Assembly (NCBI RefSeq): GCF_039880525.1
Contig: NZ_CP156989.1
Location: 2,046,001-2,110,000, forward strand
DNA from: Agrococcus sp. ProA11
GTDB taxonomy: Bacteria > Actinomycetota > Actinomycetes > Actinomycetales > Microbacteriaceae
Length of the DNA: 64,000 bases
Direction of reading: 5' to 3'
The notes under the pieces were generated by a model. The model made no database searches. It was not told where the DNA came from and saw only the letters and a program-made list of their open reading frames with translations. Positions 17,436-48,906 of this stretch are shown here, one piece after another. The first letter of the stretch is position 1. Each line of letters begins with the position of its first letter. A program made the translations under genes and the position numbers.

Positions 17436-17555
17436 CGCCTTCCTCTCGCCACCTGCGGTCAGTGTGCGCGCACGCCCGCGCGGGGGTCAACGAAGCAGGC
17501 GATCAGGAATGCGGCAGGGAAGCCCACCCATAGGCGCGGATGGGATGCTGGAGGG

Positions 17556-20500: not shown

Positions 20501-20915
20501 CGCCGTCGCGTGGTGCCCGCAGGACGCCTACGTGTTCGATTCGACCCTGCGCGGCAACCTGCTGCTCGCGCGCGCCCGCGCCGACGCGCCCGATGAGCAG
20601 GTGCTGCGCGCCGCACTCGAGCGGGCCGGCCTCGCACCGCTGCTCGACACGCTCGCCGACGGGCTCGACACCCGCGTCGGCGGCGGCGGCTCTGCGCTCT
20701 CCGGCGGGGAGCGTCAGCGGCTCGCGGTCGCCCGCGCTCTGCTGACGCGGGCCGACGTGATCCTGCTCGACGAGCCCACCGCGCACCTCGACGCCCCGAC
20801 GGCATCGGCGATGATGGCCGACGTCCGCGCCGCCACCGCCGACCGCGTCGTCGTGCTCGTCTCGCACCGCGAGGCCGACCGCCACCCGAGCGACGTCGTC
20901 GTGACGCTGCGCTGA
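17556..20915 (+). CDS. cydDC: Fused CydD-CydC thiol-reductant ABC exporter
   Basis: About 1119 aa, two complete half-transporters in one chain. Half 1: membrane domain from ~40 to 320, Walker A GPSGAGKST (~377), signature LSPGEQRRLAVARAL (~465), Walker B LLVLDEPTAHLD. Half 2: membrane domain ~600-790 with the family's VSGWLIVRA and GIFRSVGRYADRLVTHD motifs, Walker A GPSGSGKST (~943), signature LSGGERQRLAVARAL, Walker B ILLDEPTAHLD. CydDC exports glutathione/cysteine-type reductants needed for cytochrome bd assembly, and cydAB follow 1.6 kb downstream. The start is uncertain: GTG 17556 is chosen (GGATGGGA upstream), but a later start is possible. Residues ~545-580, the linker, are encoded by a REP-like repeat. 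Confidence 0.9.
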   Translation: MPRATPDSPSVDPWVLEAGRSANAPGFRRPALGPVPKGRVYALGMLAALRAGGLVLVAEAIARGIAALADGGLTAESIRTIVILGILGALLRAGAEWSTSVLARRIATDVKRRIRGQLWRRIAAGEPRGGGTAVLAADGLDDLDDYYVQTIPAIIAAAVVPLLVGIRILGADWVSAVIIVLTVPLIPFFMVLIGKHTQQRTDAALTALSRLADHLAELARGLPVLVGLGRVDEQAKALEQLQRGYRDRTQETLRWAFLSALALELVATISVAIVAVFLGLRLLQGTMALEPALLALILAPEAFNAVRQVGTAFHASQDGLSALDRSQAIIDRPAPADVRDATGAPRLDGLAVRYAGRADPTLVDVTASLTGIVSVAGPSGAGKSTLLAALSGTLPADADVRGAVHGVRADAVGWAPQAPRGFTGTPREELALYADDSQGGDALAALEELGLGHVADSAVAELSPGEQRRLAVARALARVDAGATLLVLDEPTAHLDRVAADRVRAAILRRAERAVVVLASHEPATLALATMTIQVGAPRPAPPATQVEERADLPPVEERAGAADTRHETQRHETTPHETPAPRLKLRTLLRPHLGRSLASISLASVAIAMGLALTAVSGWLIVRATLEEHIMVLMVAIVGVRAFGIFRSVGRYADRLVTHDAAFRVVDDLRLRLWRAIAARGAGSRRLLEGGAPLDYLVTLADELRDQLPRVLPQIGVGTVVIAGTVVTTALVAPQLTVVVALVLVLATGLAAALAIAAERGAAGDRVAARSELVRGTAALATSAPDLRGNGVAAAALAQLDESAERLASAERRAAWAAGLGTAVITAAVSTLAFLVPVLAPELSAEGAAVIALLSLALLEPLADLVGAVHRLPAMRAVLARLGPVLRPAPRPEWGEVTPATPVTAVELDDVAVRYPGMPHVAVTGVDGAATVARWLVLDGPSGSGKSTLLSAIMGALPLERGVIRADGTPLPELDEHAWRAAVAWCPQDAYVFDSTLRGNLLLARARADAPDEQVLRAALERAGLAPLLDTLADGLDTRVGGGGSALSGGERQRLAVARALLTRADVILLDEPTAHLDAPTASAMMADVRAATADRVVVLVSHREADRHPSDVVVTLR
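19220..19262. repeat. REP-like 43-bp element inside the cydDC linker
   Basis: GGTCGAGGAGC at one end and GCGTCACGAGACC at the other, 43 bp in total, match the element found twice in the intergenic repeat patch near 60.7 kb. Here it lies in frame between the CydD and CydC halves. A partial extra copy of the left arm (19193-19208) and further CACGAGAC copies follow, so the linker reads VEERA...VEERAGAADTRHET-QRHETTPHET. Confidence 0.75.
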
Positions 20916-34974: not shown

Positions 34975-36042
34975 TCAGTACCAGGCGTCGCCGGTGCGGC
35001 GGGTGTAGACCGCGCGCAGCCAGCGGCCCGCCTTCTGCCAGAGCGCGAAGCGACTGCTCAGCGGCAGCTCGTACGTCGGCATGTACTTCACCGGCTCCTG
35101 CGCCCACGCGGTCTTGAACGTGTAGAGGCCGCGGATCTCGCTCGTCTCCCACTCGACCGGGTCGGGGATGTTCGCGAGCTCGTAGAGCGTGACGCCCTGC
35201 CCGTGCAGGTCCTGCATGATCTTCCACTGCATGAGGTAGGGCGCGAAGATCTTCGCGTTCTCGCGGATCGAGCCCGCATCCTTGTACCAGGCGGTGTCGC
35301 CGAAGCGCATCACGAACGCCATCGACTGCACCTCGCCCTCGTAGTACGCGACGTAGAAGTGGCCCTGGCCCACCGTCTTGTAGACATCCCAGATGCGCTG
35401 GAAGTACTCCGGGTGGCGGAAGTAGCCGCCCGAGCGCGTCTTGGTCTCGCCGATGAGCCGGTGCATCTCCGCCTCGTTGTCGGGCGTCATCTCGGTCTTC
35501 TCGACCGTCACGCCGAACTTGTTCTCGGCAGCGCGGTAGGAGTTGCGGGCGCGCTTCTTGAAGCGCGCCGCGACCTCGTCGAGCGAGCCCGTCAGGTCGA
35601 CGGCCACCGCGTGCTGATACTGGCTGGATGCCGCGGGCACCCAGCCGTTGCGCTCGAACGCGGCGATCAGCTCGGGGTCCTCAGCCTGGAACGTCTCCAT
35701 CTTCAACCCGAACCAGCGCTTCGGGTAGGCCTTGGCGCGCGCGGTGATCGCGTCGATCGCCGCCGCGTCGATGCCGGAGACGCGCGGCAGGAACAGCATG
35801 CGCCCGGCGAGCGGCGCGGTGCGCTCGAAGAGCTGGATCGGCAGCTCGCGCTCACCGCCGTCGGCGGTCGGCACCGCGACGACGTCGCGCAGCGCCCTCC
35901 AGGGGCTCTGCTCGCGGGTCCTGGCCCACGCATCCGACTGCATGTAGTGGGCGCGGGACTGGCCCGCCAGCACCTGGGCATCCCACGCTGCCCCGTCGGT
36001 CGCCTTGGCGGACTTCGGCTCGTTGGCGGCGGAGGTGCTCAT
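34975..36042 (-). CDS. FemX/FemAB-type aminoacyltransferase
   Basis: 355 aa. Two GNAT-like halves typical of Fem proteins: FLPRVSGIDAAAIDAITARAK...QYQHAVAVDLTGSLDEVAARF and KKRARNSYRAAENKFGV, then HFYVAYYEGEVQSMAFVMRFGDTAWYKDAGS. They use aminoacyl-tRNA to add cross-bridge residues to lipid II (FemX/MurM). The KKRARNSYR segment and YYEGE...F block are diagnostic. Cytosolic, membrane-facing. ATG 36042 starts after a Ser/Arg-free leader; no strong Shine-Dalgarno is seen. It sits alone, upstream of the helicase-like gene. Confidence 0.88.
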   Translation of the reverse strand: MSTSAANEPKSAKATDGAAWDAQVLAGQSRAHYMQSDAWARTREQSPWRALRDVVAVPTADGGERELPIQLFERTAPLAGRMLFLPRVSGIDAAAIDAITARAKAYPKRWFGLKMETFQAEDPELIAAFERNGWVPAASSQYQHAVAVDLTGSLDEVAARFKKRARNSYRAAENKFGVTVEKTEMTPDNEAEMHRLIGETKTRSGGYFRHPEYFQRIWDVYKTVGQGHFYVAYYEGEVQSMAFVMRFGDTAWYKDAGSIRENAKIFAPYLMQWKIMQDLHGQGVTLYELANIPDPVEWETSEIRGLYTFKTAWAQEPVKYMPTYELPLSSRFALWQKAGRWLRAVYTRRTGDAWY

Positions 36043-36213
36043 GCGCTCGCTCTCTGGCTGGATGCGGGGGTCACTGCGGCGCCGATGGCACCACCCTCGA
36101 TGCTACCGGCGCGGTCGCGGGCGAAGCGTGATCGCCCATGTCGTGTGCGACGCTGACGAGAGCCTGAGCCGCGCAGGGCCGATGCGACGCAAGCGAGGAG
36201 TAGGTTCGCGAGC

Positions 36214-37293
36214 ATGAGGCTGATGGGGCCGACAATCGCCGAGCGGTACGAGCCCCGCGCGAACGCGCTCAACGCTGTGCGGCTTGCGCTCGCCCTGCTC
36301 GTCATCGTCTGGCACTCCTTCCCGCTCTCGGGCAACCGCATCGAGTGGCACCCGCTGCAGCAGTTCATGGGGCAGACCGCTGTCGATGGCTTCTTCGCCA
36401 TCAGCGGCTTTCTGATTCTCGGCAGCTGGCTGCGCAACCCGCGGTGGTTCCCGTACCTGATGGCCAGGGTGCTCCGGATCTTCCCCGCCTTCTGGGTGTG
36501 CTTGGTCGTGACCGCGTTCCTGATCGCGCCGGTGGCGACGATGCTCGCCACCAGCGGCAGCTACGGCAGCGCTATCTCCGTCGAGAGCGTCACCTACGTG
36601 CTGAAGAACGCGGCGCTTCGCATGTTCCAGGACCGCATCGGCGACACCCCGCTCGGGGTGCCGTTCACGGCCACCTGGAACGGCTCGATGTGGACGCTCT
36701 GGTGGGAATTCCTCTGCTACGTGGGCGTGCTGGCGCTGGGCGTGCTGGGGCTCCTGCGCCGCTCGTGGATCCTGCCCGCCGCATTCGTGCTTGGCCTCGT
36801 GGCCGTCATCGGCACCGGCTACGGCCCGATCGAGAACTTCTACGTCGCGACCGCCGCACGGTTCGGCACCATGTTCCTTGCCGGAGCGCTGCTGCACATC
36901 TACGCGCATCGCATACCGCTCACCTGGCCGCTCGTGGCCCTCGCGAGCGCCGCAACCATCGCCACCATGTGGCTGCCCGACTACCGCCTGCTGGGCGCAT
37001 TGCCGCTCGCCTATGCCATGTTCGGCATCGGTGCACTCGTGCAGCATCCACGGATGCGGCTGCGCAACGATCTTTCCTACGGCACCTACATCTACGCATT
37101 CCCGGTGCAGCAGCTGCTGGCATCGGCGGGCGTGCACGAGTTGGGCGTGCCCCTCTACGTGGCGGCGAGCATCGGCGTGACGCTGGCGGCCGCGGCTGCC
37201 AGCTGGTTCCTCATCGAGCGGCACGCGCTGAAGCTCAAGCCCAGGCGGCGCGCCTCCGCCGGCGCGCCGCTCGAGGTGACTGCTCAGGGCTGA
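36214..37293 (+). CDS. Acyltransferase 3 family membrane protein
   Basis: 359 aa with about ten membrane helices. The N-terminal segment NALNAVRLALALLVIVWHSFPL contains the catalytic-type His, followed by VDGFFAISGFLI and the RVLRIFPAFW block, all typical of acyltransferase_3/OafA proteins. They O-acetylate surface sugars or peptidoglycan. ATG 36214 follows TAGGTT and 7 nt (36201-36213), leaderless. Neighbours give no substrate, though the polysaccharide theme of the window fits. Confidence 0.87.
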   Translation: MRLMGPTIAERYEPRANALNAVRLALALLVIVWHSFPLSGNRIEWHPLQQFMGQTAVDGFFAISGFLILGSWLRNPRWFPYLMARVLRIFPAFWVCLVVTAFLIAPVATMLATSGSYGSAISVESVTYVLKNAALRMFQDRIGDTPLGVPFTATWNGSMWTLWWEFLCYVGVLALGVLGLLRRSWILPAAFVLGLVAVIGTGYGPIENFYVATAARFGTMFLAGALLHIYAHRIPLTWPLVALASAATIATMWLPDYRLLGALPLAYAMFGIGALVQHPRMRLRNDLSYGTYIYAFPVQQLLASAGVHELGVPLYVAASIGVTLAAAAASWFLIERHALKLKPRRRASAGAPLEVTAQG

Positions 37294-37370
37294 GCAGCAC
37301 CCGCGCTCAGCGCGGGCCTCGCGGACCCGCACGCAGCGCAAGCCCGGCATCGCGCGCGAAATTGCGCCCC

Positions 37371-37399
37371 TTGACCGCCGATCGGGGCGGGCATACGTT
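37371..37399 (+). promoter_or_regulatory. Promoter of the giant two-gene cassette
   Basis: TTGACC (37371-37376) and TACGTT (37394-37399) are spaced exactly 17 bp, the best -35/-10 pair in the 184-bp gap before the cassette. Confidence 0.6.
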
Positions 37400-37448
37400 C
37401 ACGAACGAGTCCGGGGGTTCGGGTCACCGGTAGGAGGCCCGGTCCAAG

Positions 37449-37467
37449 CCCTCGGCTCGGCCGAGGG
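37449..37467 (+). promoter_or_regulatory. Hairpin that would hide the ribosome binding site of the giant gene
   Basis: CCCTCGG-CTCGG-CCGAGGG forms a perfect 7-bp stem. Its right arm contains the GAGGGAG used as Shine-Dalgarno for the ATG at 37478, so folding would block translation initiation. Confidence 0.5.
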
Positions 37468-37477
37468 AGTGACGTCT

Positions 37478-40400
37478 ATGGCCGTCTGGGACGATATCGC
37501 CTCCAGCGTGGAGGATCCGGCAGCCCTGCAGCGCCTGGAACCGCTGCTCGCTCGGCTGGATGACGAGCCAGAGGACATCGTCGACAGCAACGGCGATCCG
37601 TGGCGCGTCTGGGAGGACGACCTCGGCGGCGACGACCCGCTCACGATCGTCCCCAGCCGCTCCGCCGTGGGACCGGGCGGTGCGGACGACGGCGTGCTCG
37701 TCATGCCCGACCCCACCGTCAACGTGAGGGTGGCGCTCGCGCTGGATGCGCCCGGCGGCGACCCCGACGGCGGCATCCGCGTGACCCTGAGGACGCCCGG
37801 CCTGCTGTTCCGCCCGCCCCGCCTGGTGCCGGCGCTGCTCGACAGCCGCGGCCAGCTGCGACCCGACCCGTCGAAGCAGCATGTCGAGTTCCGCCTGCCG
37901 CGTGTGCGGATCCGCATCGAGCGCCCGGCCGACGGCGCCTTCTCGACCCGGATGCTCGGCGCGTCGACCGACGACGACGACCCCGGGCCGGAGCGCCTCT
38001 ACGAGTTCATCCAGATGGTGCCGCCGTATGCGCTGAGCGGCCCCGACGCGACGTTCGGCTTCGCCTTCCGCTCCGCGGTGCTGGACATGAGCGAGACCGA
38101 GACCCCGTCGAGCCCCGGCGCCGACGTGATCAGCCTCCCCGACGACTGGCAGGGGCTGTGGCTGCCGGAGGCCCGGATCTTCGTCGCACCGGATGGCCTG
38201 CAGGGCATCGCGGTCAGCGCCGGCGTGCGCGACCTCTACGTCGGCATCGGCGACAGCGACGGCCTGAGCGGCGAGTTCCAGGTGGAGGTCGTCAACCGCG
38301 GCGGCGCGCCCACGCTCGGGCTGCGCATCCACACCCCGAACGGTGAACTCATCCCCATCGCCGCCGATGCCACCAGCGCCGAGGCGCCGGCCGGCTCGAC
38401 AATCGTCGCCGACGCCAATGGCGGGCTCGCCCCGCACACCTACCAGCTGGTGATCGGCGGCACCGCGGTCTCGGGAGACCGCGCCCCGCTGGGATCCCTG
38501 GCGACGCCCGCCTCGGTCTCCGCGACGGTCAACGATGCCGGCGCGCACACCACCACGCGAGCGCTCACCGTCTCCCTCCGGACGGCAGCGCGACCCGGCG
38601 ATGGTGAGCCGGCACCCAGCACCAATCCGGCCACCATCACCCGCCCGCCTGCAGCAGAGGTCGTCATCCGCATCGCGCGCCAGACGGCGACCGAGGTGGT
38701 ACTGCACGCGCCCGCGGCGCATGGCGAGCTCACCTGGACCACGCCCGCCGGGAGCCAGACGACCGCGGCCGGCGGCGAGGTGACGGTCGCCGTCGCGCCC
38801 GGCGCATCGTCGGTGGCCGTGAGCGTCAGCGAACGCGTCGTCGGCGTCGAGGTGAGGGAGGACTGCTTCTTCACGTTCGCGTCGCCGCGGGCGAACGAGA
38901 CGGCGACCGCGACCGCCCTCGCGACCTACCAGCGCGACGCCGGCAACACGAGCCAGCAGGCGCAGCTCGGTCAGCGCGGATCGTTGACGGCCCCGTTCTT
39001 CCGCGACGGCGCCGCGACGCGGTTCGCCCGCTACCCGGGCGTCGCCTGGGTGATCGACGGCTTCGCCTCCTACGAGGGCAGGCCCGAGCAGCGGGACTAC
39101 AACCGGGCGCTGAGCGAACGACGTATGGCGGTGCTGCAGGCGATGCTGGCCGACCTCGGCATCACGAACGTCGCGCTCGGCACCGCGCACGGCCACGACC
39201 GCGCCGTCACCCCCGCGGCTGGCGAGCCGCCGTCCGGGTCCGGTGAGTGGCGCCGCGCGACCGCCTCGACCACCACGGCGGACGTCACCCTCTCCGGCAG
39301 CGCCACGCTCGACCGCCCGGCCTCCCCGACGCCGGTGACGCCGGACGTCGACCCGGTGCCGCAGGAGCCCGGCCGACCGGACTGCTTCCGCAAGATCGGC
39401 GTCCGCGTGCGGATCGAGCAGGACATCTTCACGCGCCTGGAGATCTACGGCGAGTTCGACATCGAGACCGCCACCGAGGGCCGGCTGCCCGCCGCGTCGA
39501 ACGACCTGCCGCCCAACCCGTCCGACGGCATCGTCTCGTTCCTCATCGGCCTCAAGCTCGCGGCCGACCGCTCATCGTGGGAGGTTCGCGGCGAGTTCCG
39601 CGGCGACGACGCCGACCTCGACGGACTCGTGCGCTGGTCGGATGCGAACGGCGACGACACCGCCCTCAACATCCTGGGCGGCGTCGCGATCATGGCGCCG
39701 CTGATGGCGATCGCCACCCCGCCGACGGCCGATGGCACGGACCTCGTGCCGATGGTGCTGATCGGTGCCGCCGCCGGCGCGCTGGGCGCCTCCGGCGTGC
39801 TCAAGACGCACTCGCTGATCCTGCGCGGCGTGGAGCTCGTGGTCGCCGACACGCTCATCGACGCCACCGACGCGACGGGGCCCACTCGCACGACCATCAC
39901 CCTGCTGTTCGACATCGAGACCGCCTTCTCGTTCGACGCCGGCATCATCGAGATCGACCCCGCGAAGCCGGTCACGACGCGCTACAAGGCGATCGGCGTG
40001 CGGGCCGGCTGGGATGAGGTCGACGACGGATCGGGCGGGGTCGACTACGCCCCCGTGCCGGTCTTCGACGCGTCGCGCGGCTACACGCTCGACATCCCCG
40101 CCGGGTCGATGTCGGCGACGCCGCCCCTCGATGAGCTGCTGCGGATCCTCGGCGTGCAGGTGAGCCGCAGCAATCCCGCCTACCTCGAGCTCGAGGTGGC
40201 GCTGGGCATCGACCTCGGCGTCATCTCGGTCGACTCCGCACGCGTGCGGATCCTGCTCGACACTCCCACCGACATCGAGCTGACGAAGCTCGCGGCGTCG
40301 ATCGAGATCCCCGGCGCCCTGCACGGCAAGGGCTCGGTGAGCATCGACGAGCACGGGTTCAGCGGCGCCCTCGACATCACGCTCACCTCGATCAACCTGC

Positions 40401-43400
40401 GGGCCGCGGCGACCATCACCGTCAGCACGCATCCCACCGACGGCTACACCGGCGTGCTGGTCGGCGCGGAGGTCGAGTTCCCGGTGCCGCTGGTGCTGGG
40501 AGGGTCGGGGCTCGGCATCTTCGGCTTCAGCGGCGGCGTGGCGATCAACTACACGCGCAACAGCGGCAGCGAGCCCACCGCGGCGCTGCAGTGGGTGCAC
40601 CGCCAGCTCGCCGGCGACGGGGTCATGGACGGATCGGGCTGGACGCTCGACTCCGGCACGTTCGCGATCGCGGCGGGGATGCTGGTCGGCACGCTTGAGG
40701 GCGGCTTCCTCATGCACCTCAAGGGCATGCTGATGATCGAGATCCCCGGACCTCGCCTGCTGCTGATCATGAAGGCCGACGTGATCAAGGCTCCGCCCGC
40801 GCTCGGCGCCACCCAGAGCGCCACGTTCCTGGCCGTGCTCGATCTCGACGTGGTGCGCGGCACCATCACCATCGCGATCGTCGCCGAATACACGATCGAG
40901 CGCATCCTGCAGATCCGGGTGCCGGTCACCGCGTTCTTCCCGACGAAGGGCGACACGCGCCACTGGTTCATCGATCTCGGCAGCTTCGACGACCCGATCA
41001 CGGTCGCGGTGCTGGACGCGTTCGAGGGCACCGGCTACCTGATGATCCACGGCGCCGGGCTGACGCATCCCAACCTCGGCGTCACCACGACCGGGCTCAC
41101 CGTCACCGCCGGGTTCCACCTGCGCGCCGTGCTCATGGGCTCGAAGAGCATCGGGCTGTACCTGGAGGCGACGGCGGGCTTCGACGTGCTCCTCGCCTTC
41201 GAGCCGGTGTTCCTCGCCGGTCGCATCTACGTGACCGGCGAGCTGCGCCTGTTCATCATCAGCATCGGCGCCAGCGCCGAGCTGCAGATCCGGGTGGGGC
41301 AGGAGGATCCCGCGCAGCCGGACCAGACGACGTTCGTGTTCGGCGAGGTCTGCGGCAAGGTCGACTTCTTCTTCTTCTCCGTCAAGGGGTGCGTCTCGCT
41401 CGAGATCGGTCACCAGCCGACGCTGCCGCCCGCCCCGGACCTGGTGCTGGGCGTCTCGCTCGTCGGCCGCGGCCCCGCACTGATCGAGGGCGATGGGGCG
41501 GAGCGCATCATCGACGGCAAGCTCGGCGTCGCCGTGGCGGGCGACGGCAGCGCGGTCCCGGTCGCCGACCGCCTGCAGGTGCCGATCGATGCCATCCCCG
41601 TGATCGCCTTCAGCGCCACGCCGGACCTCGAGCCCGGCGGCACGGTGCTGGGCACCGCGCCGGTCGGCCCCAGCAGCGCCGGGTTCACGGGCGGATGGGT
41701 GAAGCGCGGCGACCTGTGGGTGCGGTACCGCGTGACCTCGGTGACGCTGCTGGAGGGTTCCACGACGTTCGACCCCGACGGCCAGCAGACCCCGTCGGCG
41801 TGGTGGGCGCAGAGCCCACCGGATCCGTCGCTGGTCGACAGCCTGGCGCTGCTGAGCTGGATCCCGAATGCCACGCCGCATGCGCTGCCCTACGGCGAGA
41901 CGCTGGTCGAGGGGCTCACCCGCGAGTGGGATGTGTGCACCCCCGCTGCACCCCCGGCCGAGTCGCTGTGGACGTTCGACCGCCAGCGACTCGGACCCGA
42001 CGCCACCGGATGGCACCTGCGCGGCCTGAGCTGGCCGGACCCCGCCGACACGCAGGAGCCGCAGCGGACGCGCGTCGACCTGCACGTCACGGAGCCGTGG
42101 CGCACCGGGCACGCGGTCGCCGACCTGCTCGGTCCCAGTCCTGGCCGGATCGTCGGCGACGCGGTCGGCTGCGCGAGCGAGGAGGCGATCCCGCCGTCGC
42201 TGCAGGCCTGGGGCGACGACATCCGTGCCAGCCGGGCCGCGGGACTGGAGCAGCCGCTCGGACGCGAGGATCTCGCCGAGGCGCTGGCGGCCGGCGCATC
42301 GCTGCTCGACGCCGTCGCCGCGGTCACCGACCTGGGCTGGGATCCGCAGCTGAACCCCGAGGTCGGCGGCTGCGAGGGACGCATCCTCGAGGCGCCGCTC
42401 GGGCTCGACGACGACCCCTCGGTCGCGGGACCGGCCAGCGACCGCAGCGTCGTCGTCGAGGCTTGGGAACAGGCCCGGCACGAGCCCAATGCGCTGCGCA
42501 ACGCCGTGCGCATCACCCCCACCTCGGCCCTCACCACGATGAGCGTCATGCTGCTGGTTCCCGACCGGCAGCTGGCCGCGGGCTCCCTGACGATCCGGCG
42601 GCTGAAGGCAGACGGATCGGAGCTCGACGCAACCGCGGTCACGCAGGCCCACCGCGTGGGCGCCGGTGCGACGGTGCCCACCACCTGGTGGGATCCGAAC
42701 CTCGGCCCGTGGGCCGACCCCGTCTCGCGCGCGGGACGCGCGGCGGCCCGGATCGCGCAGTCGCGCCCGGCCGACGAGAAGGGCAGGTTCGCCCTGGTGT
42801 TCGTCGAGCTGCCCGACGCGGGTGAGACCGCGATGGTCGACATCGGCTGGCAGCGAGCCGTCGCCCCCTCGGCGAGCCCGTTCTTCGTCATCGCGCTCGC
42901 CGGGCTGACGCTCGCCGAGCGCGAGCGCCACACGCGCCAGAGCGACTACCTCGCGGAGCGTCGCGCTGCCGTCGAGACGACCCTGACCCAGGACCCGAGC
43001 GATCACGCGCTGCTGCGCCCCGGCCGCTCGTACACGGTCCGGGTGGCGTGGCAGTCGCAGACGGTGGAGCAGCCAGAGCGGCCCGGCGATGTTCCGGGGG
43101 CCTGGGATCCCGGGGCTCCGGCGGAGTACACGTTCTGGACCGTCGAGCGCGACGCGCGGCCGGCCGACCTCTCGCCATGGCTGCTCGCCACGGCACCGAC
43201 GACGGGAGAGCACGGCGTGCTGTGCACGCAGCCGGTGCGCCTGGCGCTCTCGAGCCAGAGCGTGACGCGGCTGTTCGCGGCGCACGGCCGCACGCTGCAG
43301 GTGCGCGTGCGCGCGGCCAGCGGATCGCACCCGCCGCCTCCGGGCGGCGCGGCCGATGATCTGGTGCTGATCCCGATGGATCCCGGTGGCATCCGGCGCG

Positions 43401-44212
43401 CGCTGAGCCCCGCAGTCGACGTCTCCTCCGCCTTCCACAAGGGACTGCGCGAGGTCGCCGACGCGCTCCCGTGCGTCGACCCTGGGCCCGCGCCGGATCG
43501 TGAGGAGATCTTCATCCCCTACCACTTCGATCCGCTCACCGAGTATCTGATCGACGTGTTCGCCGTCCCGGACGGCGCCACGACCGTCACCGATGACGAC
43601 CGCGTGCACCGGATCTCGTTCACGACCTCCCGCTTCGACACCGTCGGGGAGCTGGCCGCGCTGGTCAGGTTCGGCCCGACGAGCGACATCGCGCTCACGA
43701 ACCCGAGCGCGCTCGACTCCCTGACGGACCGGCCCAGCGGAGCCGAGCTCGACGAAGCGTTCCTGGCCGCCGGACTCGATGCACCCACCGTGCCGAGGGT
43801 CTCGTCGACCACCGTCGCCTGGGGAGTGCGGGGCGGCGTGATGGAGCCGATCGCGGTCATCATCGAGAGCAACGAGACGCTCTGGCGCTCCCGTTCGCAG
43901 CCGGTCGAGCAGCATGCCGACGCGGACAGCGAGGATCCTCGCCACACCTGGTGGGTCCGCACCCCCACCGACTGGATGACGGTCGAGACGAGCGGCGACG
44001 CCGCCGTCCGCCGGCGCATCCGCGGCCCGGGAGACACGCGGCTGGTGGTGCTGCTCGAGCCAGGGCAGCGCGGGAAGACGCTCAGCATCGACCTGGTGGT
44101 GCCCGCAGATCCGTTCTGGCGATCGCCGGACTCCCCGGGGGACGGCGATGAGCAGCGCTCCCCGATGGCGTCCTTCGTGCTCAGCCAACCCATCTGGGAG
44201 GTGGAGGACTGA
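37478..44212 (+). CDS. Giant beta-rich protein with OmpA-like domain, function unknown
   Basis: 2244 aa, no signal peptide or clear membrane helix. Residues ~500-575 contain VAWVIDGFASYEGRPEQRDYNRALSERRMAVLQAM, the pattern of an OmpA-like peptidoglycan-binding fold. From ~640 to ~1330 come amphipathic beta stretches such as VPLVLGGSGLGIFGFSGGVAINY, GGFLMHLKGMLMIEIPG and LAGRIYVTGELRLFIISIG, which remind me of DUF6603-type regions; I cannot confirm that. The last ~900 residues are further Ig-like/beta segments with Trp-Pro-rich stretches. ATG 37478 is chosen because GAGGGAG lies 8 nt before it. It overlaps the next gene by one base (TGATG) and the pair is transcribed together. A large structural or assembly protein is the likeliest reading. 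Confidence 0.75.
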   Translation: MAVWDDIASSVEDPAALQRLEPLLARLDDEPEDIVDSNGDPWRVWEDDLGGDDPLTIVPSRSAVGPGGADDGVLVMPDPTVNVRVALALDAPGGDPDGGIRVTLRTPGLLFRPPRLVPALLDSRGQLRPDPSKQHVEFRLPRVRIRIERPADGAFSTRMLGASTDDDDPGPERLYEFIQMVPPYALSGPDATFGFAFRSAVLDMSETETPSSPGADVISLPDDWQGLWLPEARIFVAPDGLQGIAVSAGVRDLYVGIGDSDGLSGEFQVEVVNRGGAPTLGLRIHTPNGELIPIAADATSAEAPAGSTIVADANGGLAPHTYQLVIGGTAVSGDRAPLGSLATPASVSATVNDAGAHTTTRALTVSLRTAARPGDGEPAPSTNPATITRPPAAEVVIRIARQTATEVVLHAPAAHGELTWTTPAGSQTTAAGGEVTVAVAPGASSVAVSVSERVVGVEVREDCFFTFASPRANETATATALATYQRDAGNTSQQAQLGQRGSLTAPFFRDGAATRFARYPGVAWVIDGFASYEGRPEQRDYNRALSERRMAVLQAMLADLGITNVALGTAHGHDRAVTPAAGEPPSGSGEWRRATASTTTADVTLSGSATLDRPASPTPVTPDVDPVPQEPGRPDCFRKIGVRVRIEQDIFTRLEIYGEFDIETATEGRLPAASNDLPPNPSDGIVSFLIGLKLAADRSSWEVRGEFRGDDADLDGLVRWSDANGDDTALNILGGVAIMAPLMAIATPPTADGTDLVPMVLIGAAAGALGASGVLKTHSLILRGVELVVADTLIDATDATGPTRTTITLLFDIETAFSFDAGIIEIDPAKPVTTRYKAIGVRAGWDEVDDGSGGVDYAPVPVFDASRGYTLDIPAGSMSATPPLDELLRILGVQVSRSNPAYLELEVALGIDLGVISVDSARVRILLDTPTDIELTKLAASIEIPGALHGKGSVSIDEHGFSGALDITLTSINLRAAATITVSTHPTDGYTGVLVGAEVEFPVPLVLGGSGLGIFGFSGGVAINYTRNSGSEPTAALQWVHRQLAGDGVMDGSGWTLDSGTFAIAAGMLVGTLEGGFLMHLKGMLMIEIPGPRLLLIMKADVIKAPPALGATQSATFLAVLDLDVVRGTITIAIVAEYTIERILQIRVPVTAFFPTKGDTRHWFIDLGSFDDPITVAVLDAFEGTGYLMIHGAGLTHPNLGVTTTGLTVTAGFHLRAVLMGSKSIGLYLEATAGFDVLLAFEPVFLAGRIYVTGELRLFIISIGASAELQIRVGQEDPAQPDQTTFVFGEVCGKVDFFFFSVKGCVSLEIGHQPTLPPAPDLVLGVSLVGRGPALIEGDGAERIIDGKLGVAVAGDGSAVPVADRLQVPIDAIPVIAFSATPDLEPGGTVLGTAPVGPSSAGFTGGWVKRGDLWVRYRVTSVTLLEGSTTFDPDGQQTPSAWWAQSPPDPSLVDSLALLSWIPNATPHALPYGETLVEGLTREWDVCTPAAPPAESLWTFDRQRLGPDATGWHLRGLSWPDPADTQEPQRTRVDLHVTEPWRTGHAVADLLGPSPGRIVGDAVGCASEEAIPPSLQAWGDDIRASRAAGLEQPLGREDLAEALAAGASLLDAVAAVTDLGWDPQLNPEVGGCEGRILEAPLGLDDDPSVAGPASDRSVVVEAWEQARHEPNALRNAVRITPTSALTTMSVMLLVPDRQLAAGSLTIRRLKADGSELDATAVTQAHRVGAGATVPTTWWDPNLGPWADPVSRAGRAAARIAQSRPADEKGRFALVFVELPDAGETAMVDIGWQRAVAPSASPFFVIALAGLTLAERERHTRQSDYLAERRAAVETTLTQDPSDHALLRPGRSYTVRVAWQSQTVEQPERPGDVPGAWDPGAPAEYTFWTVERDARPADLSPWLLATAPTTGEHGVLCTQPVRLALSSQSVTRLFAAHGRTLQVRVRAASGSHPPPPGGAADDLVLIPMDPGGIRRALSPAVDVSSAFHKGLREVADALPCVDPGPAPDREEIFIPYHFDPLTEYLIDVFAVPDGATTVTDDDRVHRISFTTSRFDTVGELAALVRFGPTSDIALTNPSALDSLTDRPSGAELDEAFLAAGLDAPTVPRVSSTTVAWGVRGGVMEPIAVIIESNETLWRSRSQPVEQHADADSEDPRHTWWVRTPTDWMTVETSGDAAVRRRIRGPGDTRLVVLLEPGQRGKTLSIDLVVPADPFWRSPDSPGDGDEQRSPMASFVLSQPIWEVED

Positions 44213-47200
44213 TGGCCATCTCGAGCGACGTGTTCGCGTTCCGGGGCGAGGGCGCGGTGATCCCCTGGGCGTCGATCAGCCGCGAGCAGGATGCCGCGGG
44301 CCGCGGACGCGGCGACCCCGAGCAGCTGCGAGCGCGCAAGCGCGCGATCGCGGATCGACCGGCCGACGTGCAGCTGCGGTGGATGGTGGCACCCACGCTC
44401 GGGATGCCGAACCAGCCGTTCCAGGTGTTCCGCCGCCAGCCGGGGCGCATCCCGCTCGCGGAGATCCCGGTCCGCTCCGGCAGGAGGCTGACCCTCGATC
44501 GCGTCGCAGCCGTGATCGAGGTCGACGTGACCGCGCCCGCCGGGAGCACGGTGACGCTCTCGGCATCGCGCGTCGGAGCGCGAGCGGACGACGCCGATGA
44601 TCGACCCATCCGCGTGGAGGAGATGGTCGGTGCCGCAAGCCGGGTGGCGCCGTCATCGGGGAGCCTGCGGCTGCAGATCCGCTGCAGCGGCGCGACCGTG
44701 ATCGAGGTCTCGCCGGGACGGATGACGCGGGTCGCCGTCGGCCTGCTCGAGGACGTCGTGGCACTGCCGGACTGGGAGCTGATCGAGGTCGTCGGCCTGC
44801 CGTTCGATGTCGGCACCTACGACGCCGGAGAGCAGGGACTCGTCACGGCGCTCACCGACCCGGAGACGGCCGCGATCCAGCGGCTCGAGCGCGGCTCGCC
44901 GCCGATCGGATGGTTCCCGGCCACGGAGGACGCCACGATCGCCCCCGACTGGTCCGCACCCGACCCGGCCGAGCTCGTCAAGGAGGTCACGCTCGGGCTG
45001 AGAGAGGAGATCAAGCCGATCTTCGATGGCCGGCCAGCCCACACCGCGGCCCGGTTCGCGACCACCCGCAGGGCGACGCCCGACGGTTCCACGCTGGAGA
45101 CGGTCGCCACGATCAGGCCGTTCCACTCCCTCACCCTGCCGCCCTCGGCCGAAGCGCCGCTCGCGCTCGCCCTCGGCTTCGGCACCGCCTACGCCGCGCA
45201 GGACGGCGATGTGGAGGCGGGCGCCACCGACGACTACCTGATCCTGGCGACCTACGACGACGAGATCCCCGACAGCGGAGGCAGCAACGAGATCGCCGCC
45301 TTCATCCCCACCCCGGCGCTGCACCACCGGCTCACCGCGCCGCAGCTGCTCGAGACCCGCAGCGCCGGGCTGCGCGCCCCTGAGGCGCCCGACGGCCCGT
45401 GGGCGGACGATGCGCAGGTGAGCTGGGCCGAGTCGCCGGCCAGCGCCGCGCTGGAGCGGCCCTCGGGCGCAGCCTTCGCCCGCACCGAGCTCGGGGCGAC
45501 CAGGGCCGACTCGCTGCTGCCGCCGCGGGATGCCGGAGGGCCGCGCACGCTGCTGCCCACCACCTCGCCCGCAGCCGAGGGCCCACCCCCCGACGACACG
45601 GTGCCGCGCATCCGAGAGGGGCGCGTCGGCCTGGTCGACGGTGCGCTCACGATTTCCGCGACCACGGGGGCGAGATCGGTCTCCTACAGCGTCGCGCTCG
45701 TCGACCTGTACGGCGTCTGGTCGCCCTGGGAGGATCGCGACCACGTCGCGCTCGCGCCCGCACCGCCTGCGCCCGGCATCGTGGATGTGTCGATGGTGGC
45801 GCAGTACGACGGGCACCCGGCCGCGTGCCCGACCGTCACGACCTTCGACCTCACCGTCGACTGGGAGACCCGCGTGCCGAGCGCCGTCCAGCTGCTTCCG
45901 GTGCTCTTCCCCACGGCACGGACGGGAGACGCTCCCGGCGCGCGGCCGCCGGCGGCGGCGCCCGCGTCGACGATCCCGATCCCGCTGACCCTGCAGTTCC
46001 TGGGCGACGAGCTGCAGCCACCGGCGTCGCCGCCCGCCGGCTTCTCCGTCACCATCGAGCACGTCGACGAGGAGGGCGAGCAGGTCGTGCTCCCCGGCGC
46101 CGATCAGGGCGAGAAGCGGCGCCGGTATCGCATCGTGCTCACGCACACGCTCGACTACAGCGGCACCCGGTGGTGGGGTGTGGAGATCTGGGCGCGCACG
46201 CACCTCGCGCTCGGCATGACCAGCATCTGGGTGCCGACGGTGCCAGCCGGCGACCCGCGGCCGCCCAGCGCCTACGCGATGACGGCACGCGCGGCCAGCC
46301 CGGTGCCGCCGAGCCCGCCATTGGTCACGCAGGGGCCGTCCGTGCCGCTGGCGAGCACGCCGGACGCCCAGGGGCACAGCCACGCCAGCATCCCCGTCAC
46401 CGTGCACGGCCCCAACCCGCGCACCGTCAGCATCTGGGAGGTCTCGGAGGCGGCGCTGCGCACAGCGGCGGGGCTCGCGCAGCGGGCGGAGGAGACCGCG
46501 ACGCCCAGCGAGCGCCTCGTGCAGCTGCGGGCCGTGTACGACGGGTTGAGCGCGACCCGTCGGCGCGCCGTGTTCCGCCGAGCGCTCACGGTCGACGCCA
46601 CCACGGGCGTTGCCGACGTCGTGCTGCCGCGCGGCTCGACCGACATCCACCTCTTCGGCCTCACCGCGACCACCGCGGAGGGGGTCGAGTCGGAGTGGCC
46701 GCAGGGCGGCGGCGCGATCGCGCCGCATCAGTACCTGCATGCAGTCATGGCACCGCGCCTGGTCGCGCCGGCGGTCCCGGCCGTGCGAGCCACACCCGTC
46801 GCCGCCGGCCTCGCCGTCGAGCTGCGCTGCCTCAGCCGCATCCCGGTCGCCCGCTTCGAGGTCTTCGCCACCCGATCCTCGGCTGCCTCGCGCGTGGCCT
46901 CGTCGATGGGCCCACCGGTGATCGCCCCGATCGCCACGCTCGATGCTGCCTGGACGCCGGAGATCCCCGCCGAGCAGGGGATGCAGCGCTACACGGCGGT
47001 GGCCGTCGCCCCGCTGGCCGACAGCTGGACGCCGTGGTTCGTGCGCGCCGTCGCCGTGCCGGTCGATGCCGTCGGCGTGCTCGCGCTGCGCGGCATGCGG
47101 TCGCCCGACTCCCCCGTCGTGCCCGTCGACCTCCGCCCCTCCGACGGCCCGTTCGTCGCCCCGGTCCTGGGGCGCTCCGTCCGCACCGATCTGGTCGCGT

Positions 47201-47934
47201 TCCAGAGCGGCACCGACGCCCTGGCGACGACCATCGACGAGGGAGCGTTCACGATCCGCGTCCGTGTCGATTCGGGGGCCGAGAGCCAGACGACGACTGC
47301 GGTGCCGCTGGGCGATGTCGCAGCCGTGGTGGATGTGACGGCGCAGCCGAGCGCGATCCCGCTCGCCTCGCAGCCTCCGCTGGTGCTGCGCGGGCCGCGC
47401 GTCGGCGGGATGACGCCGCTGGCAGTCTGGTGGCAGCGGCCCAGCGCCGACGACGCGGTGCAGGCCCGGATCTCGGTCACCGACCCCATCGGACGCAGCA
47501 CCCACGGGATCGGGACGGCGCCGGCGGTGCCCGACGACCCCGCGTTCGGCCTCACGCTCGTCGACGGTCCGACGATCGAGCCGCGCGGCGTCGGGCTGAC
47601 GCTCTCGACGAAGGCGCCCCGCACGCCGGAGTGGAGCCTGACGATCACCGTCAAGCCGCGGGCGCCGCTGCGCGGCATCCGACCGCGGCCCGTGACCTGG
47701 TCGTCCGCGCTCTCAGCGATCCCCACCGAGCGCACGCCCGTGGGCCGCGGGGTGATCCAGGTGCGCCGCATCGCTGGCGACCTGCGCCTGCCCCGCAGGG
47801 ACAAGGGCGCCTACGCGGTCTTCATCCGCATGAAGCCGCCGTTCACGCTCGTCGCCCGGCTCACCGGGCCGAGCGGCGCCGCCGGAGCCGTCAGTGTCGA
47901 CGTGGGCGACCGGCTGGTGATCGGGCCGCGGTGA
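44212..47934 (+). CDS. Large beta-sandwich (FN3-like) protein, partner of the giant gene
   Basis: 1240 aa, no signal peptide. The N-terminus MAISSDVFAFRGEGAVIPWASI is followed by beta-rich segments. Several segments have the FN3/Ig strand rhythm ending in an aromatic-Pro-Trp turn: SYSVALVDLYGVWSPWEDRD, IHLFGLTATTAEGVESEWP, YTAVAVAPLADSWTPWFVRAV. The C-terminus ends PFTLVARLTGPSGAAGAVSVDVGDRLVIG. No known family is recognised. Its ATG overlaps the stop of the giant gene (TGATG), so translation is coupled and the two products are expected in a fixed ratio. The stop lies 17 bp from the 3' end of tRNA-Arg on the other strand. Confidence 0.72.
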   Translation: MAISSDVFAFRGEGAVIPWASISREQDAAGRGRGDPEQLRARKRAIADRPADVQLRWMVAPTLGMPNQPFQVFRRQPGRIPLAEIPVRSGRRLTLDRVAAVIEVDVTAPAGSTVTLSASRVGARADDADDRPIRVEEMVGAASRVAPSSGSLRLQIRCSGATVIEVSPGRMTRVAVGLLEDVVALPDWELIEVVGLPFDVGTYDAGEQGLVTALTDPETAAIQRLERGSPPIGWFPATEDATIAPDWSAPDPAELVKEVTLGLREEIKPIFDGRPAHTAARFATTRRATPDGSTLETVATIRPFHSLTLPPSAEAPLALALGFGTAYAAQDGDVEAGATDDYLILATYDDEIPDSGGSNEIAAFIPTPALHHRLTAPQLLETRSAGLRAPEAPDGPWADDAQVSWAESPASAALERPSGAAFARTELGATRADSLLPPRDAGGPRTLLPTTSPAAEGPPPDDTVPRIREGRVGLVDGALTISATTGARSVSYSVALVDLYGVWSPWEDRDHVALAPAPPAPGIVDVSMVAQYDGHPAACPTVTTFDLTVDWETRVPSAVQLLPVLFPTARTGDAPGARPPAAAPASTIPIPLTLQFLGDELQPPASPPAGFSVTIEHVDEEGEQVVLPGADQGEKRRRYRIVLTHTLDYSGTRWWGVEIWARTHLALGMTSIWVPTVPAGDPRPPSAYAMTARAASPVPPSPPLVTQGPSVPLASTPDAQGHSHASIPVTVHGPNPRTVSIWEVSEAALRTAAGLAQRAEETATPSERLVQLRAVYDGLSATRRRAVFRRALTVDATTGVADVVLPRGSTDIHLFGLTATTAEGVESEWPQGGGAIAPHQYLHAVMAPRLVAPAVPAVRATPVAAGLAVELRCLSRIPVARFEVFATRSSAASRVASSMGPPVIAPIATLDAAWTPEIPAEQGMQRYTAVAVAPLADSWTPWFVRAVAVPVDAVGVLALRGMRSPDSPVVPVDLRPSDGPFVAPVLGRSVRTDLVAFQSGTDALATTIDEGAFTIRVRVDSGAESQTTTAVPLGDVAAVVDVTAQPSAIPLASQPPLVLRGPRVGGMTPLAVWWQRPSADDAVQARISVTDPIGRSTHGIGTAPAVPDDPAFGLTLVDGPTIEPRGVGLTLSTKAPRTPEWSLTITVKPRAPLRGIRPRPVTWSSALSAIPTERTPVGRGVIQVRRIAGDLRLPRRDKGAYAVFIRMKPPFTLVARLTGPSGAAGAVSVDVGDRLVIGPR

Positions 47935-47951
47935 CGCTCCGCAGCCGCGAG

Positions 47952-48023
47952 TGCCCCTGGAGGGATTCGAACCCCCAACCAGCTCCTTAGGACGGAGATG
48001 CTCTTCCATTGAGCTACAGAGGC
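47952..48023 (-). tRNA. tRNA-Arg (anticodon CCT)
   Basis: A 72-nt cloverleaf on the minus strand: acceptor GCCTCTG/CAGGGGC, D-arm GCTC-AATGGAA-GAGC, anticodon loop GTCCTAA giving CCT (codon AGG), T-arm GGGGGTTCGAATCCCTC. A -10 hexamer TAGAAT lies 10 bp upstream of the 5' end (48039-48034). Confidence 0.94.
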
Positions 48024-48033
48024 AGGCCCGATG

Positions 48034-48039
48034 ATTCTA
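48034..48039 (-). promoter_or_regulatory. -10 element of the tRNA-Arg promoter
   Basis: TAGAAT on the minus strand, ending 10 bp before the mature tRNA 5' end. Confidence 0.6.
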
Positions 48040-48058
48040 GCGCGGGCCGGATGAGCGA

Positions 48059-48089
48059 AGCGCCCGCCCTCGCGAGGAGGACGGGCGCT
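48059..48089 (-). terminator. Hairpin terminator of the first C40-type gene
   Basis: AGCGCCCG pairs with CGGGCGCT, with an inner CCCTC/GAGG extension. It starts 16 bp after the stop at 48106 on the minus strand and precedes the tRNA-Arg promoter. Confidence 0.75.
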
Positions 48090-48105
48090 GCGCGCGGGGA
48101 TCAGT

Positions 48106-48906
48106 TCACGTGATGTCGATGAACACCGGGGCCGAGCCGCCGATGTCGACGCCGGCGACGACGGTGTTGTAGCCGCTCCAGCCGCCGTGCACCGCGCGGC
48201 CGCCGCCGATGTAGATCCCGATGTGGGCGCGGCCGACTCCACCGTCGGCGTAGTAGATCACGTCGCCGGGCGATGCCGCCGACATGGGGATGGTCGGGCC
48301 GAGGTTGAACAGCGAACCCATCCCGGAGTAGGGAAGACCAGCAGCAGCGATCGCCTTGCGAACCATCGCGACGCAGTCCTGCGAGACGCCGACCTGGCTG
48401 AGCGCCGCATTTGCGATGACGCTGCCCGATGCGCCCGCGGATGCCGCGGCGGGCGCTGCGGGCGCTGCGGGCGCGGCCGACGATGACGCGCCGCTCGACG
48501 AACCGACCCCTGCGGTGCCGCTGCTCGCGTTCGCGGCCGCTGCCTCCTCGGCCTGGGCCTGCTCCTGCGCCTCGATCTCGGCGGCTGCGGCGGCCTCGAG
48601 TTCGGCGAGGATCTGCTCGAGCTCCTCGCGGGTGGTGGCCTGTACGTCAAGGCGATCGGTCCCGAGTCCGCTCTCACCAGCGGTCACGACGCCGGAGACC
48701 TGCTGGGCGTCCTGCGCGACAAGCGCCGTCAGCGACTCCTGCGAGCCTGCGTCGGAGGACGTGGCGAATGCCGGCAGGGCCAGCGGTGTCGCGAACGCGG
48801 CGGCGACAGCGATCACGCCGACCCGACGGGCGTTCCGCACGACCGATGCGCGGCTGAACCGCTTCGCGCCGGACTCGATGCCGGTCATCTCGGTAGAAGT
48901 CGTCAC
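48106..48906 (-). CDS. Secreted NlpC/P60-like (C40/CHAP-type) cell-wall peptidase
   Basis: 266 aa. A signal peptide (VGVIAVAAAFATPLALPAFA, ~28-48) is followed by a coiled-coil region (~85-125) and an Ala/Ser-rich linker. The catalytic domain (~160-266) has the nucleophile Cys in SQDCVAMVRKA, the His in GRAHIGIYIGGGR and a second His in AVHGGWSGYN. It lacks the usual WGG motif, so it is a divergent member. It should cut peptidoglycan peptides during growth or division. GTG 48906 has TTGGAGC upstream. Its promoter region shares tandem GTAAC-type half-sites with the next gene. Confidence 0.8.
   Translation of the reverse strand: MTTSTEMTGIESGAKRFSRASVVRNARRVGVIAVAAAFATPLALPAFATSSDAGSQESLTALVAQDAQQVSGVVTAGESGLGTDRLDVQATTREELEQILAELEAAAAAEIEAQEQAQAEEAAAANASSGTAGVGSSSGASSSAAPAAPAAPAAASAGASGSVIANAALSQVGVSQDCVAMVRKAIAAAGLPYSGMGSLFNLGPTIPMSAASPGDVIYYADGGVGRAHIGIYIGGGRAVHGGWSGYNTVVAGVDIGGSAPVFIDIT

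What the first reader, a model, noticed from the sequence alone, without database searches (positions are those of the whole stretch)
37478..47934. Two coupled giant genes (2244 and 1240 codons) of unknown function next to a tRNA
Together they use 10.5 kb, are overlapped by one base (TGATG) and carry no signal peptides. Both are beta-rich. The first contains an OmpA-like stretch and amphipathic beta runs; the second has FN3-like turns. No recognised function. A large intracellular or injected structural assembly is one possibility; a secreted complex by a non-classical route is another.
Basis: partly seen in the sequence, partly recalled or inferred. Interest (0 to 1): 0.82.

Follow-up and report, generated by a model that had tools for sequence, protein, structure and literature searches.

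The report
Giant paired genes around DUF6603
Two very large neighbouring bacterial genes of unknown function occur together in bacteria of several phyla, one built around a poorly known beta domain and the other probably a chain of fibronectin-like modules; what they do is not known.

Summary
In detail: two real genes (2,244 and 1,240 codons) overlap by one base. g1 is a long, divergent DUF6603 protein with an OmpA-like domain and an amphipathic beta core. g2 is probably a chain of FN3/Ig-like sandwiches, without Pfam, NCBIfam or PDB-sequence match. g2 was found in 12 of 12 searched genomes or records that carry window-type g1 (Actinomycetota, Acidobacteriota, Bacteroidota, Gemmatimonadota, Pseudomonadota, one Myxococcota MAG) and in 0 of 14 others with more distant DUF6603-like genes. 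In 8 of the 12 a third giant, g3, exists; its PLD-like end lacks HxK at the aligned site. The own genome lacks g3. Other DUF6603 genes, haloarchaeal ones included, also lie in runs of giant genes with unrelated partners. In the genus, 0 of 23 congeners carry g1; the pair sits in a variable stretch between FemAB and tRNA-Arg/NlpC-P60. Two text searches found no paper naming DUF6603. Best reading, weakly supported (0.33): a mobile extracytoplasmic assembly that engages membrane or lipid. Injection by an own contractile system is not supported. The function remains open.

The parts
37478..44212 (+). g1: giant DUF6603-like protein, 2,244 aa
37478..38887 (+). g1 N-terminal beta region (aa 1-470), no known family
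   Evidence: aligned in A1; no profile link to the core or to canonical DUF6603
38975..39307 (+). OmpA-like domain (about aa 500-610)
   Evidence: profile A1 against PDB sequences, best E 2.8e-7; R549 invariant in 11 of 11 rows
39527..41407 (+). amphipathic beta core (aa 684-1310); the part matching DUF6603 begins near aa 890
   Evidence: Pfam PF20248 aa 890-1097, E 1.2e-4, 21.2 bits, below the cut-off 27; profile-profile 97.7%, E 1.5e-12 with 9 canonical DUF6603 proteins; model blocks mostly 70-89 pLDDT from model residue about 350 on, mixed before; moment z 5.3
39659..39802 (+). two hydrophobic segments in the core (about aa 728-775)
   Evidence: hydropathy; helices in the model
41351..41392 (+). 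signature CGKVDFFFFSVKGC (aa 1292-1305); both Cys kept in 10 of 11 rows and both absent in the eleventh (Rhizobium)
   Evidence: alignment
42155..44209 (+). g1 C-terminal region (aa 1560-2244), alignable to the end
44212..47934 (+). g2: probable FN3/Ig-like chain, 1,240 aa
   Evidence: no Pfam, NCBIfam or PDB-sequence match
47951..48023 (-). tRNA-Arg(CCT), border of the variable stretch; not part of the unit
36214..37293 (+). acyltransferase-3 protein, neighbour in the variable stretch; no match in 8 congener stretches or in 13 loci of relatives (L002-L011, L013-L015)
   Evidence: PF01757 E 1.7e-26
34975..36042 (-). FemAB-like protein, left border of the variable stretch
   Evidence: PF02388; 89-94% identical in 6 of 8 fetched congener stretches
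48106..48906 (-). NlpC/P60 protein, right border
   Evidence: PF00877; matches in 23 of 24 genus genomes, own included

Best explanation
A mobile, self-contained pair (in most relatives a trio) of giant proteins that assemble outside the cytoplasm into one complex that engages a membrane or lipid. Shown by computation: conserved pairing and order, OmpA-like domain, amphipathic DUF6603-like beta core, a Cys pair kept or lost together, a PLD-like but HxK-less end of g3 in relatives, sporadic distribution. Probable: FN3-like chain in g2. Inferred: g1 and g2 bind each other; the core binds lipid or inserts in a membrane; g2 is the stalk or scaffold; the PLD-like end of g3 recognises lipid head groups and is dispensable in Actinomycetota; with no classical signal seen, the proteins leave by lysis or an unknown route.
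For: g2 in 12 of 12 genomes or records with window-type g1 and in 0 of 14 others (A2 was built from 9 of the 12, so the independent cases are L003's genome, L009's genome and the Rhizobium plasmid). With the starts I chose, g1-g2 junctions overlap by 1 or 4 bases or are 1-30 bases apart in 10 of 10 loci measured. Core: beta moment z 5.3; model of many long strands. Its 4 PDB matches at E <= 0.001 are three FimD ushers and ApoB100; LptD (1.4e-3), vitellogenin (7.6e-3) and porins follow. g2: 59 PDB matches at E <= 0.001, of which the 50 listed are mostly FN3/Ig chains and include the giant adhesin SiiE. Cys 1292/1305 kept in 10 of 11 rows and both lost in one, Cys 1487 in 11 of 11, as for disulphides outside the cytosol. 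Two haloarchaeal DUF6603 loci carry genes annotated with BGTF-surface and lamin-tail domains. PLD-like g3 end: and for the missing HxK.
Against: No signal peptide was recognised, and I recognised no secretion system beside the units, although their neighbours were not searched systematically. Mean pLDDT is 55 (g1 part) and 54 (g2); TM-scores by query length are 0.05-0.19 and 0.06-0.14, so the fold matches are hints only; the g1 list also holds unrelated folds such as OrfX2 and an amine oxidase. The OmpA-like Asp (recalled from A. baumannii OmpA) is not kept in the window's group. L004 g3 has one H.K...D string away from the aligned site. There are no expression or localisation data.
Confidence: 0.33

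Rival explanations
1. A cytosolic or envelope-internal lipid conduit: the amphipathic core forms a groove that moves lipids, analogous to AsmA/TamB or VPS13 proteins, with g2 as scaffold.
For: Amphipathic core, long strands, ApoB100 and vitellogenin among the matches, PLD-like partner, no signal peptide recognised.
Against: No AsmA or chorein match in Pfam; no internal repeats of the core by self-alignment; FN3-like chain and Cys pair are unusual for a cytosolic protein; occurs in Actinomycetota without outer membrane.
Confidence: 0.2
2. A lysis-released antagonistic or host-interaction complex, comparable in layout to Tc complexes: giant proteins without signals, one perhaps membrane-inserting.
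For: Sizes and number of genes, sporadic spread, amphipathic core; some related DUF6603 loci lie near RHS, DUF2235, PLD-like or lysozyme genes.
Against: No Pfam or NCBIfam toxin domain in g1 or g2; identity stays 0.30-0.59 up to the C-terminus in the three g1 pairs compared and 0.33-0.68 in two g2 pairs, without a variable tip, though one g1 pair dips to 0.21-0.28 inside; no PDB-sequence match other than OmpA-like ones for g1 and none for g2; the neighbour genes were not counted against a control.
Confidence: 0.15
3. A cytoplasmic structural assembly (compartment, filament or granule coat).
For: No signal peptides recognised; large size; tight gene order.
Against: OmpA-like and FN3-like domains and paired Cys; two haloarchaeal relatives lie with genes annotated with surface domains.
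Confidence: 0.15
4. An anti-phage defence unit in a variable chromosomal stretch.
For: The stretch holds different genes in congeners; sporadic spread; the Mycetohabitans PLD-like protein matches DISARM DrmC models (best E 3e-6) and an MkoB model (1.2e-4), as PLD-superfamily proteins may.
Against: No PADLOC match at E 0.1 for g1, g2, two g3 proteins or the Mycetohabitans g2-like protein; cargo recognised in congeners is MFS, YCII, GAF-ANTAR and patatin-like (6 of 10 proteins tested had a Pfam match), not a defence island.
Confidence: 0.07

Closest known systems
DUF6603 (Pfam PF20248)
   Same: The core of g1 is a divergent member by profile comparison (97.7%, E 1.5e-12); both kinds lie in runs of giant genes.
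   Different: g1 is longer than the canonical proteins looked at, except the 3,233-aa one in L044; it scores below the Pfam cut-off and adds an OmpA-like domain; its partners have no sequence link to those of canonical genes.
Mycetohabitans endofungorum plasmid locus
   Same: Comparable ingredients: a gene with weak g2 likeness (hhalign E 8e-4, probability 25%), a Pfam PLDc_2 protein, and a DUF6603 giant matching A1 at E 5.2e-32.
   Different: Different order; the PLD protein is short (463 aa as annotated) and matches the Pfam PLDc active-site model; no A2 match at E 0.001.
OmpA-like C-terminal domain
   Same: Profile match, best E 2.8e-7; Arg549 in 11 of 11 rows.
   Different: Embedded inside a giant protein; the Asp (recalled) is not kept in the window's group.
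Tc toxin complexes (recalled)
   Same: Several giant proteins without classical signals.
   Different: No such chain among the PDB-sequence matches of g1, g2 or g3; no variable toxin part seen.
AsmA/TamB and VPS13-type lipid bridges (listing and abstract starts seen)
   Same: Very long amphipathic beta structure.
   Different: No family match, no repeats found.

Membership tests
DUF6603 (PF20248) | score over the Pfam gathering cut-off | tested here: not met
   window g1 21.2 bits against 27; homologue L004 reaches 43.6; L005 and L006 g1 have no hit at E 0.1
DUF6603 (PF20248) | profile-level homology to canonical members | tested here: met
   hhalign 97.7%, E 1.5e-12, 387 columns, 9 canonical proteins
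OmpA-like domain | sequence profile match | tested here: met
   40 PDB sequences listed at E <= 1, nearly all OmpA-like, best 2.8e-7
OmpA-like domain | peptidoglycan-binding Asp and Arg (recalled) | tested here: inconclusive
   Arg in 11 of 11 rows; Asp position replaced in the window's group, ambiguous elsewhere
FN3 chain (g2) | FN3-like fold | tested here: inconclusive
   FN3/Ig matches with E down to 3.1e-9, but TM by query 0.06-0.14 and mean pLDDT 54; no Pfam hit at E 1
PLD superfamily (g3 of relatives) | homology of the C-terminal part | tested here: met
   hhalign 94%, E 1.4e-7 to a Pfam PLDc_2 protein
PLD superfamily (g3 of relatives) | HxK catalytic residues | tested here: not met
   absent at the aligned site in 5 of 5 rows that reach it; one H.K...D string elsewhere in L004
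Contractile injection system | sheath protein in the genome | tested here: not met
   PF04984 0 of 1; rings in 3 of 14 controls
AsmA/VPS13-type lipid bridge | family match and repeating groove | tested here: not met
Tc-type complex | sequence match or variable toxin part | tested here: not met
Known anti-phage systems | PADLOC model match | tested here: not met
   g1, g2 and two g3: none at E 0.1

The most novel reading that the evidence does not exclude
DUF6603 marks a whole undescribed class of mobile macromolecular machines in bacteria and archaea: one amphipathic beta platform combined with interchangeable sets of unrelated giant partners (at least the window type, a type with 'LPVRLETRF'-like partners, and the L043/L048 type), working as membrane-engaging extracytoplasmic assemblies without classical export.
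Probability: 0.3. Interest if true: 0.88.

Novelty: new variant of a known kind. Interest (0 to 1): 0.62.

Why it matters
A unit of more than 10 kb is costly in a 2.67 Mb genome, yet it occurs across phyla with its pairing kept, so it probably does something useful. DUF6603 is in Pfam, but two text searches found no paper naming it. Seeing that DUF6603 genes regularly lie in runs of giant genes, in bacteria and haloarchaea, turns isolated 'hypothetical' giants into a class that can be tested as complexes.

Tried and rejected
Phages: no tblastn match in 50,697 records and no confirmed relative in viral contigs, so no sign of a phage unit. Island with att repeat: no copy of the tRNA 3' end near 37 kb and no convincing repeat; GC and GC3 are like the surroundings, so an old arrival or a donor of like GC. 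g3 elsewhere in the own genome: none. Link of g2 or g3 to partners of canonical DUF6603 genes: none. Internal repeats in the core or g2: none by self-hhalign. Viral fold library: 3 matches at E <= 0.001 with TM by query 0.07-0.15, among them a porin-like protein. Three genes picked up weakly by the g3 profile in Kribbella, Sphingobium and the alphaproteobacterial MAG stand alone, away from g1; they were not run against Pfam. Literature: DUF6603 in 0 papers (the InterPro number was recalled), a multi-term search 0; some searches were seen as listings and abstract starts only, with nothing on this family. No paper was opened.
Full report
Observation. Both genes are real. g1 (37478-44212) and g2 (44212-47934) are open over 2,244 and 1,240 codons and overlap by one base. 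GC3 is 0.93 for each against 0.71 and 0.73 for two long antisense ORFs. g1 has one match, itself, in the 2.67 Mb genome. The tRNA-Arg(CCT) at 47951-48023 is a neighbour, not a part.

Relatives. One scan of genome contigs gave 10 loci: two Kribbella, an Acidobacteriales MAG, Lewinella, Sulfidibacter, a Gemmatimonas MAG, Sphingobium, an Anaeromyxobacter MAG, an Alphaproteobacteria MAG and a 4.2 kb fragment from an Aquabacterium MAG. Plasmids added Rhizobium tropici and Paracoccus aminophilus and, more distantly, two Mycetohabitans records; one of the latter was looked at. g1 is 44% identical to Kribbella over its length and 26-35% to the others over parts (and for plasmids). Phage records gave none.

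Pair and trio. With profile A2, g2 was found in 12 of 26 genomes or records: the 12 that carry window-type g1, and none of the 14 others (11 phylum genomes with canonical DUF6603, G048, G071 and the Mycetohabitans plasmid). Nine of the 12 were used to build A2. The Aquabacterium fragment was not in that call; it has the start of a g2-like gene (53% to the Gemmatimonas one). With profile A3, matches at E <= 0.001 came from 10 of 13: strong ones in 8 (G062-G068 and the Rhizobium plasmid, in two pieces in G068 and in the plasmid), weak ones over the PLD-like part in Kribbella soli and Mycetohabitans; none in the own genome, the second Kribbella and the Paracoccus plasmid. Six of the eight were used to build A3. 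Of Rhizobium, Paracoccus and Mycetohabitans only the plasmid was searched. The end of g3 is PLD-like (hhalign 94%, E 1.4e-7) without HxK at the aligned site in 5 of 5 rows.

Domains of g1. Pfam gives only DUF6603 (E 1.2e-4, under the cut-off). The core profile matches nine canonical DUF6603 proteins (97.7%, E 1.5e-12) and the Mycetohabitans giant (99.7%). The OmpA-like domain rests. The core is amphipathic in the beta sense (z 5.3; other parts in the observation check). The AlphaFold2 model of aa 605-1570 has mean pLDDT 55.2 and pTM 0.38; blocks from about model residue 350 to 700 mostly lie between 70 and 89, the last 259 residues are below 50. Its PDB matches at E <= 0.001 are three FimD chains and ApoB100; LptD, SlpA, vitellogenin and porins follow, TM by query 0.05-0.19: compatible with a large amphipathic sheet, no more. 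Cys 1292 and 1305 are kept in 10 of 11 rows and both absent in Rhizobium; Cys 1487 is in 11 of 11.

g2. No family match (Pfam and NCBIfam none at E 1; PHROGs one at E 0.079) and none in PDB sequences. The model has mean pLDDT 54.1 with better blocks at about aa 590-660 and 720-950; of 59 PDB matches at E <= 0.001 most of the 50 listed are FN3/Ig chains.

Other DUF6603 loci. DUF6603 was found in 12 of 396 phylum genomes, own included, 11 of them over the cut-off. I looked at 17 loci with canonical-type DUF6603 genes (L043-L054, L075-L079), with a simple ORF picker or as annotated. In 15 of 17 at least two genes over 500 codons follow on the same strand; L044 has one, and L049 meets the contig end. 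DUF6603 is not always first: a large same-strand gene also stands directly before it in L047, L049, L052, L054 and L077. Hosts among the named records are Streptomyces, Nocardia, Paenibacillus, Rhizobium and the haloarchaea Salinigranum and Halalkalicoccus. Their partners fall into at least two sets without BLAST or profile link to g2 or g3. The loci were chosen by hits, not at random.

Spread. Among 60 genomes nearest to the window's, own included, the g1 core rang in the own genome and weakly in one of the same order; 0 of 23 congeners and 0 of 13 other family members have it. In the class of Sphingobium it rang in 2 of 289: the Sphingobium itself and one distant relative. The core tree puts window and Kribbella together (100/100) and Rhizobium in their group (80/84), apart from Paracoccus and Sphingobium, whose group has 100/99; 4 of 9 inner branches are starred, three are open, and the outgroup branch is very long. 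This suggests transfer between phyla but is not a strong test. Eight congener stretches were fetched around NlpC/P60 hits: tRNA-Arg is found in 7 and FemAB in 6 of 8; in these 6 the distance between tRNA and FemAB is about 0.9 to 5.8 kb, with differing genes; in the window it is 11.9 kb. The window's acyltransferase is in none of the 8, nor beside the relatives' units. No att repeat was seen.

Reading. The common factor of these loci is the DUF6603 core; the giants beside it change. OmpA-like, FN3-like and paired-Cys features favour a place outside the cytosol; against it stands the lack of recognised signal peptides. Injection by an own contractile system is not supported. I put the extracytoplasmic membrane- or lipid-engaging assembly first at 0.33, a lipid conduit at 0.2, a lysis-released antagonistic complex and a cytosolic structure at 0.15 each, defence at 0.07; the rest is unknown.

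Noticed in passing
window 34975-48906: FemAB and tRNA-Arg(CCT)/NlpC-P60 border a stretch with differing genes in congeners; among those are MFS, YCII, GAF-ANTAR and patatin-like/DUF3376 genes.
   Followed up: partly
L043-L054, L075-L079: Canonical DUF6603 genes lie in runs of giant hypothetical genes in bacteria and haloarchaea, with at least two unrelated partner sets (one with 'LPVRLETRF'- and 'GRQWQLGEF'-like motifs); a PhoD-like gene precedes the one in L047 (E 3.5e-5, below cut-off).
   Followed up: partly
L029: An alphaproteobacterial locus with a distant g1-core relative (2,009 codons) between a gene of 1,181 and one of over 1,500 codons; its genome has no A2 match.
   Followed up: no
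L009, L031: The g1 of the 'Anaeromyxobacter' MAG is 68-74% identical to alphaproteobacterial ones: contamination of the MAG or recent transfer.
   Followed up: no
L015: Endofungal symbiont Mycetohabitans: gene with weak g2 likeness, PLD-like gene and a DUF6603 giant with a weak LamG-like stretch (below cut-off), with transposase genes nearby.
   Followed up: partly
L051, L053, L054: Some DUF6603 plasmid loci lie near genes annotated RHS, DUF2235, PLD-like, GH25 lysozyme or CVNH; no control was done.
   Followed up: no
window 16002-20915: A further long open frame (1,637 codons, plus strand) was not examined.
   Followed up: no
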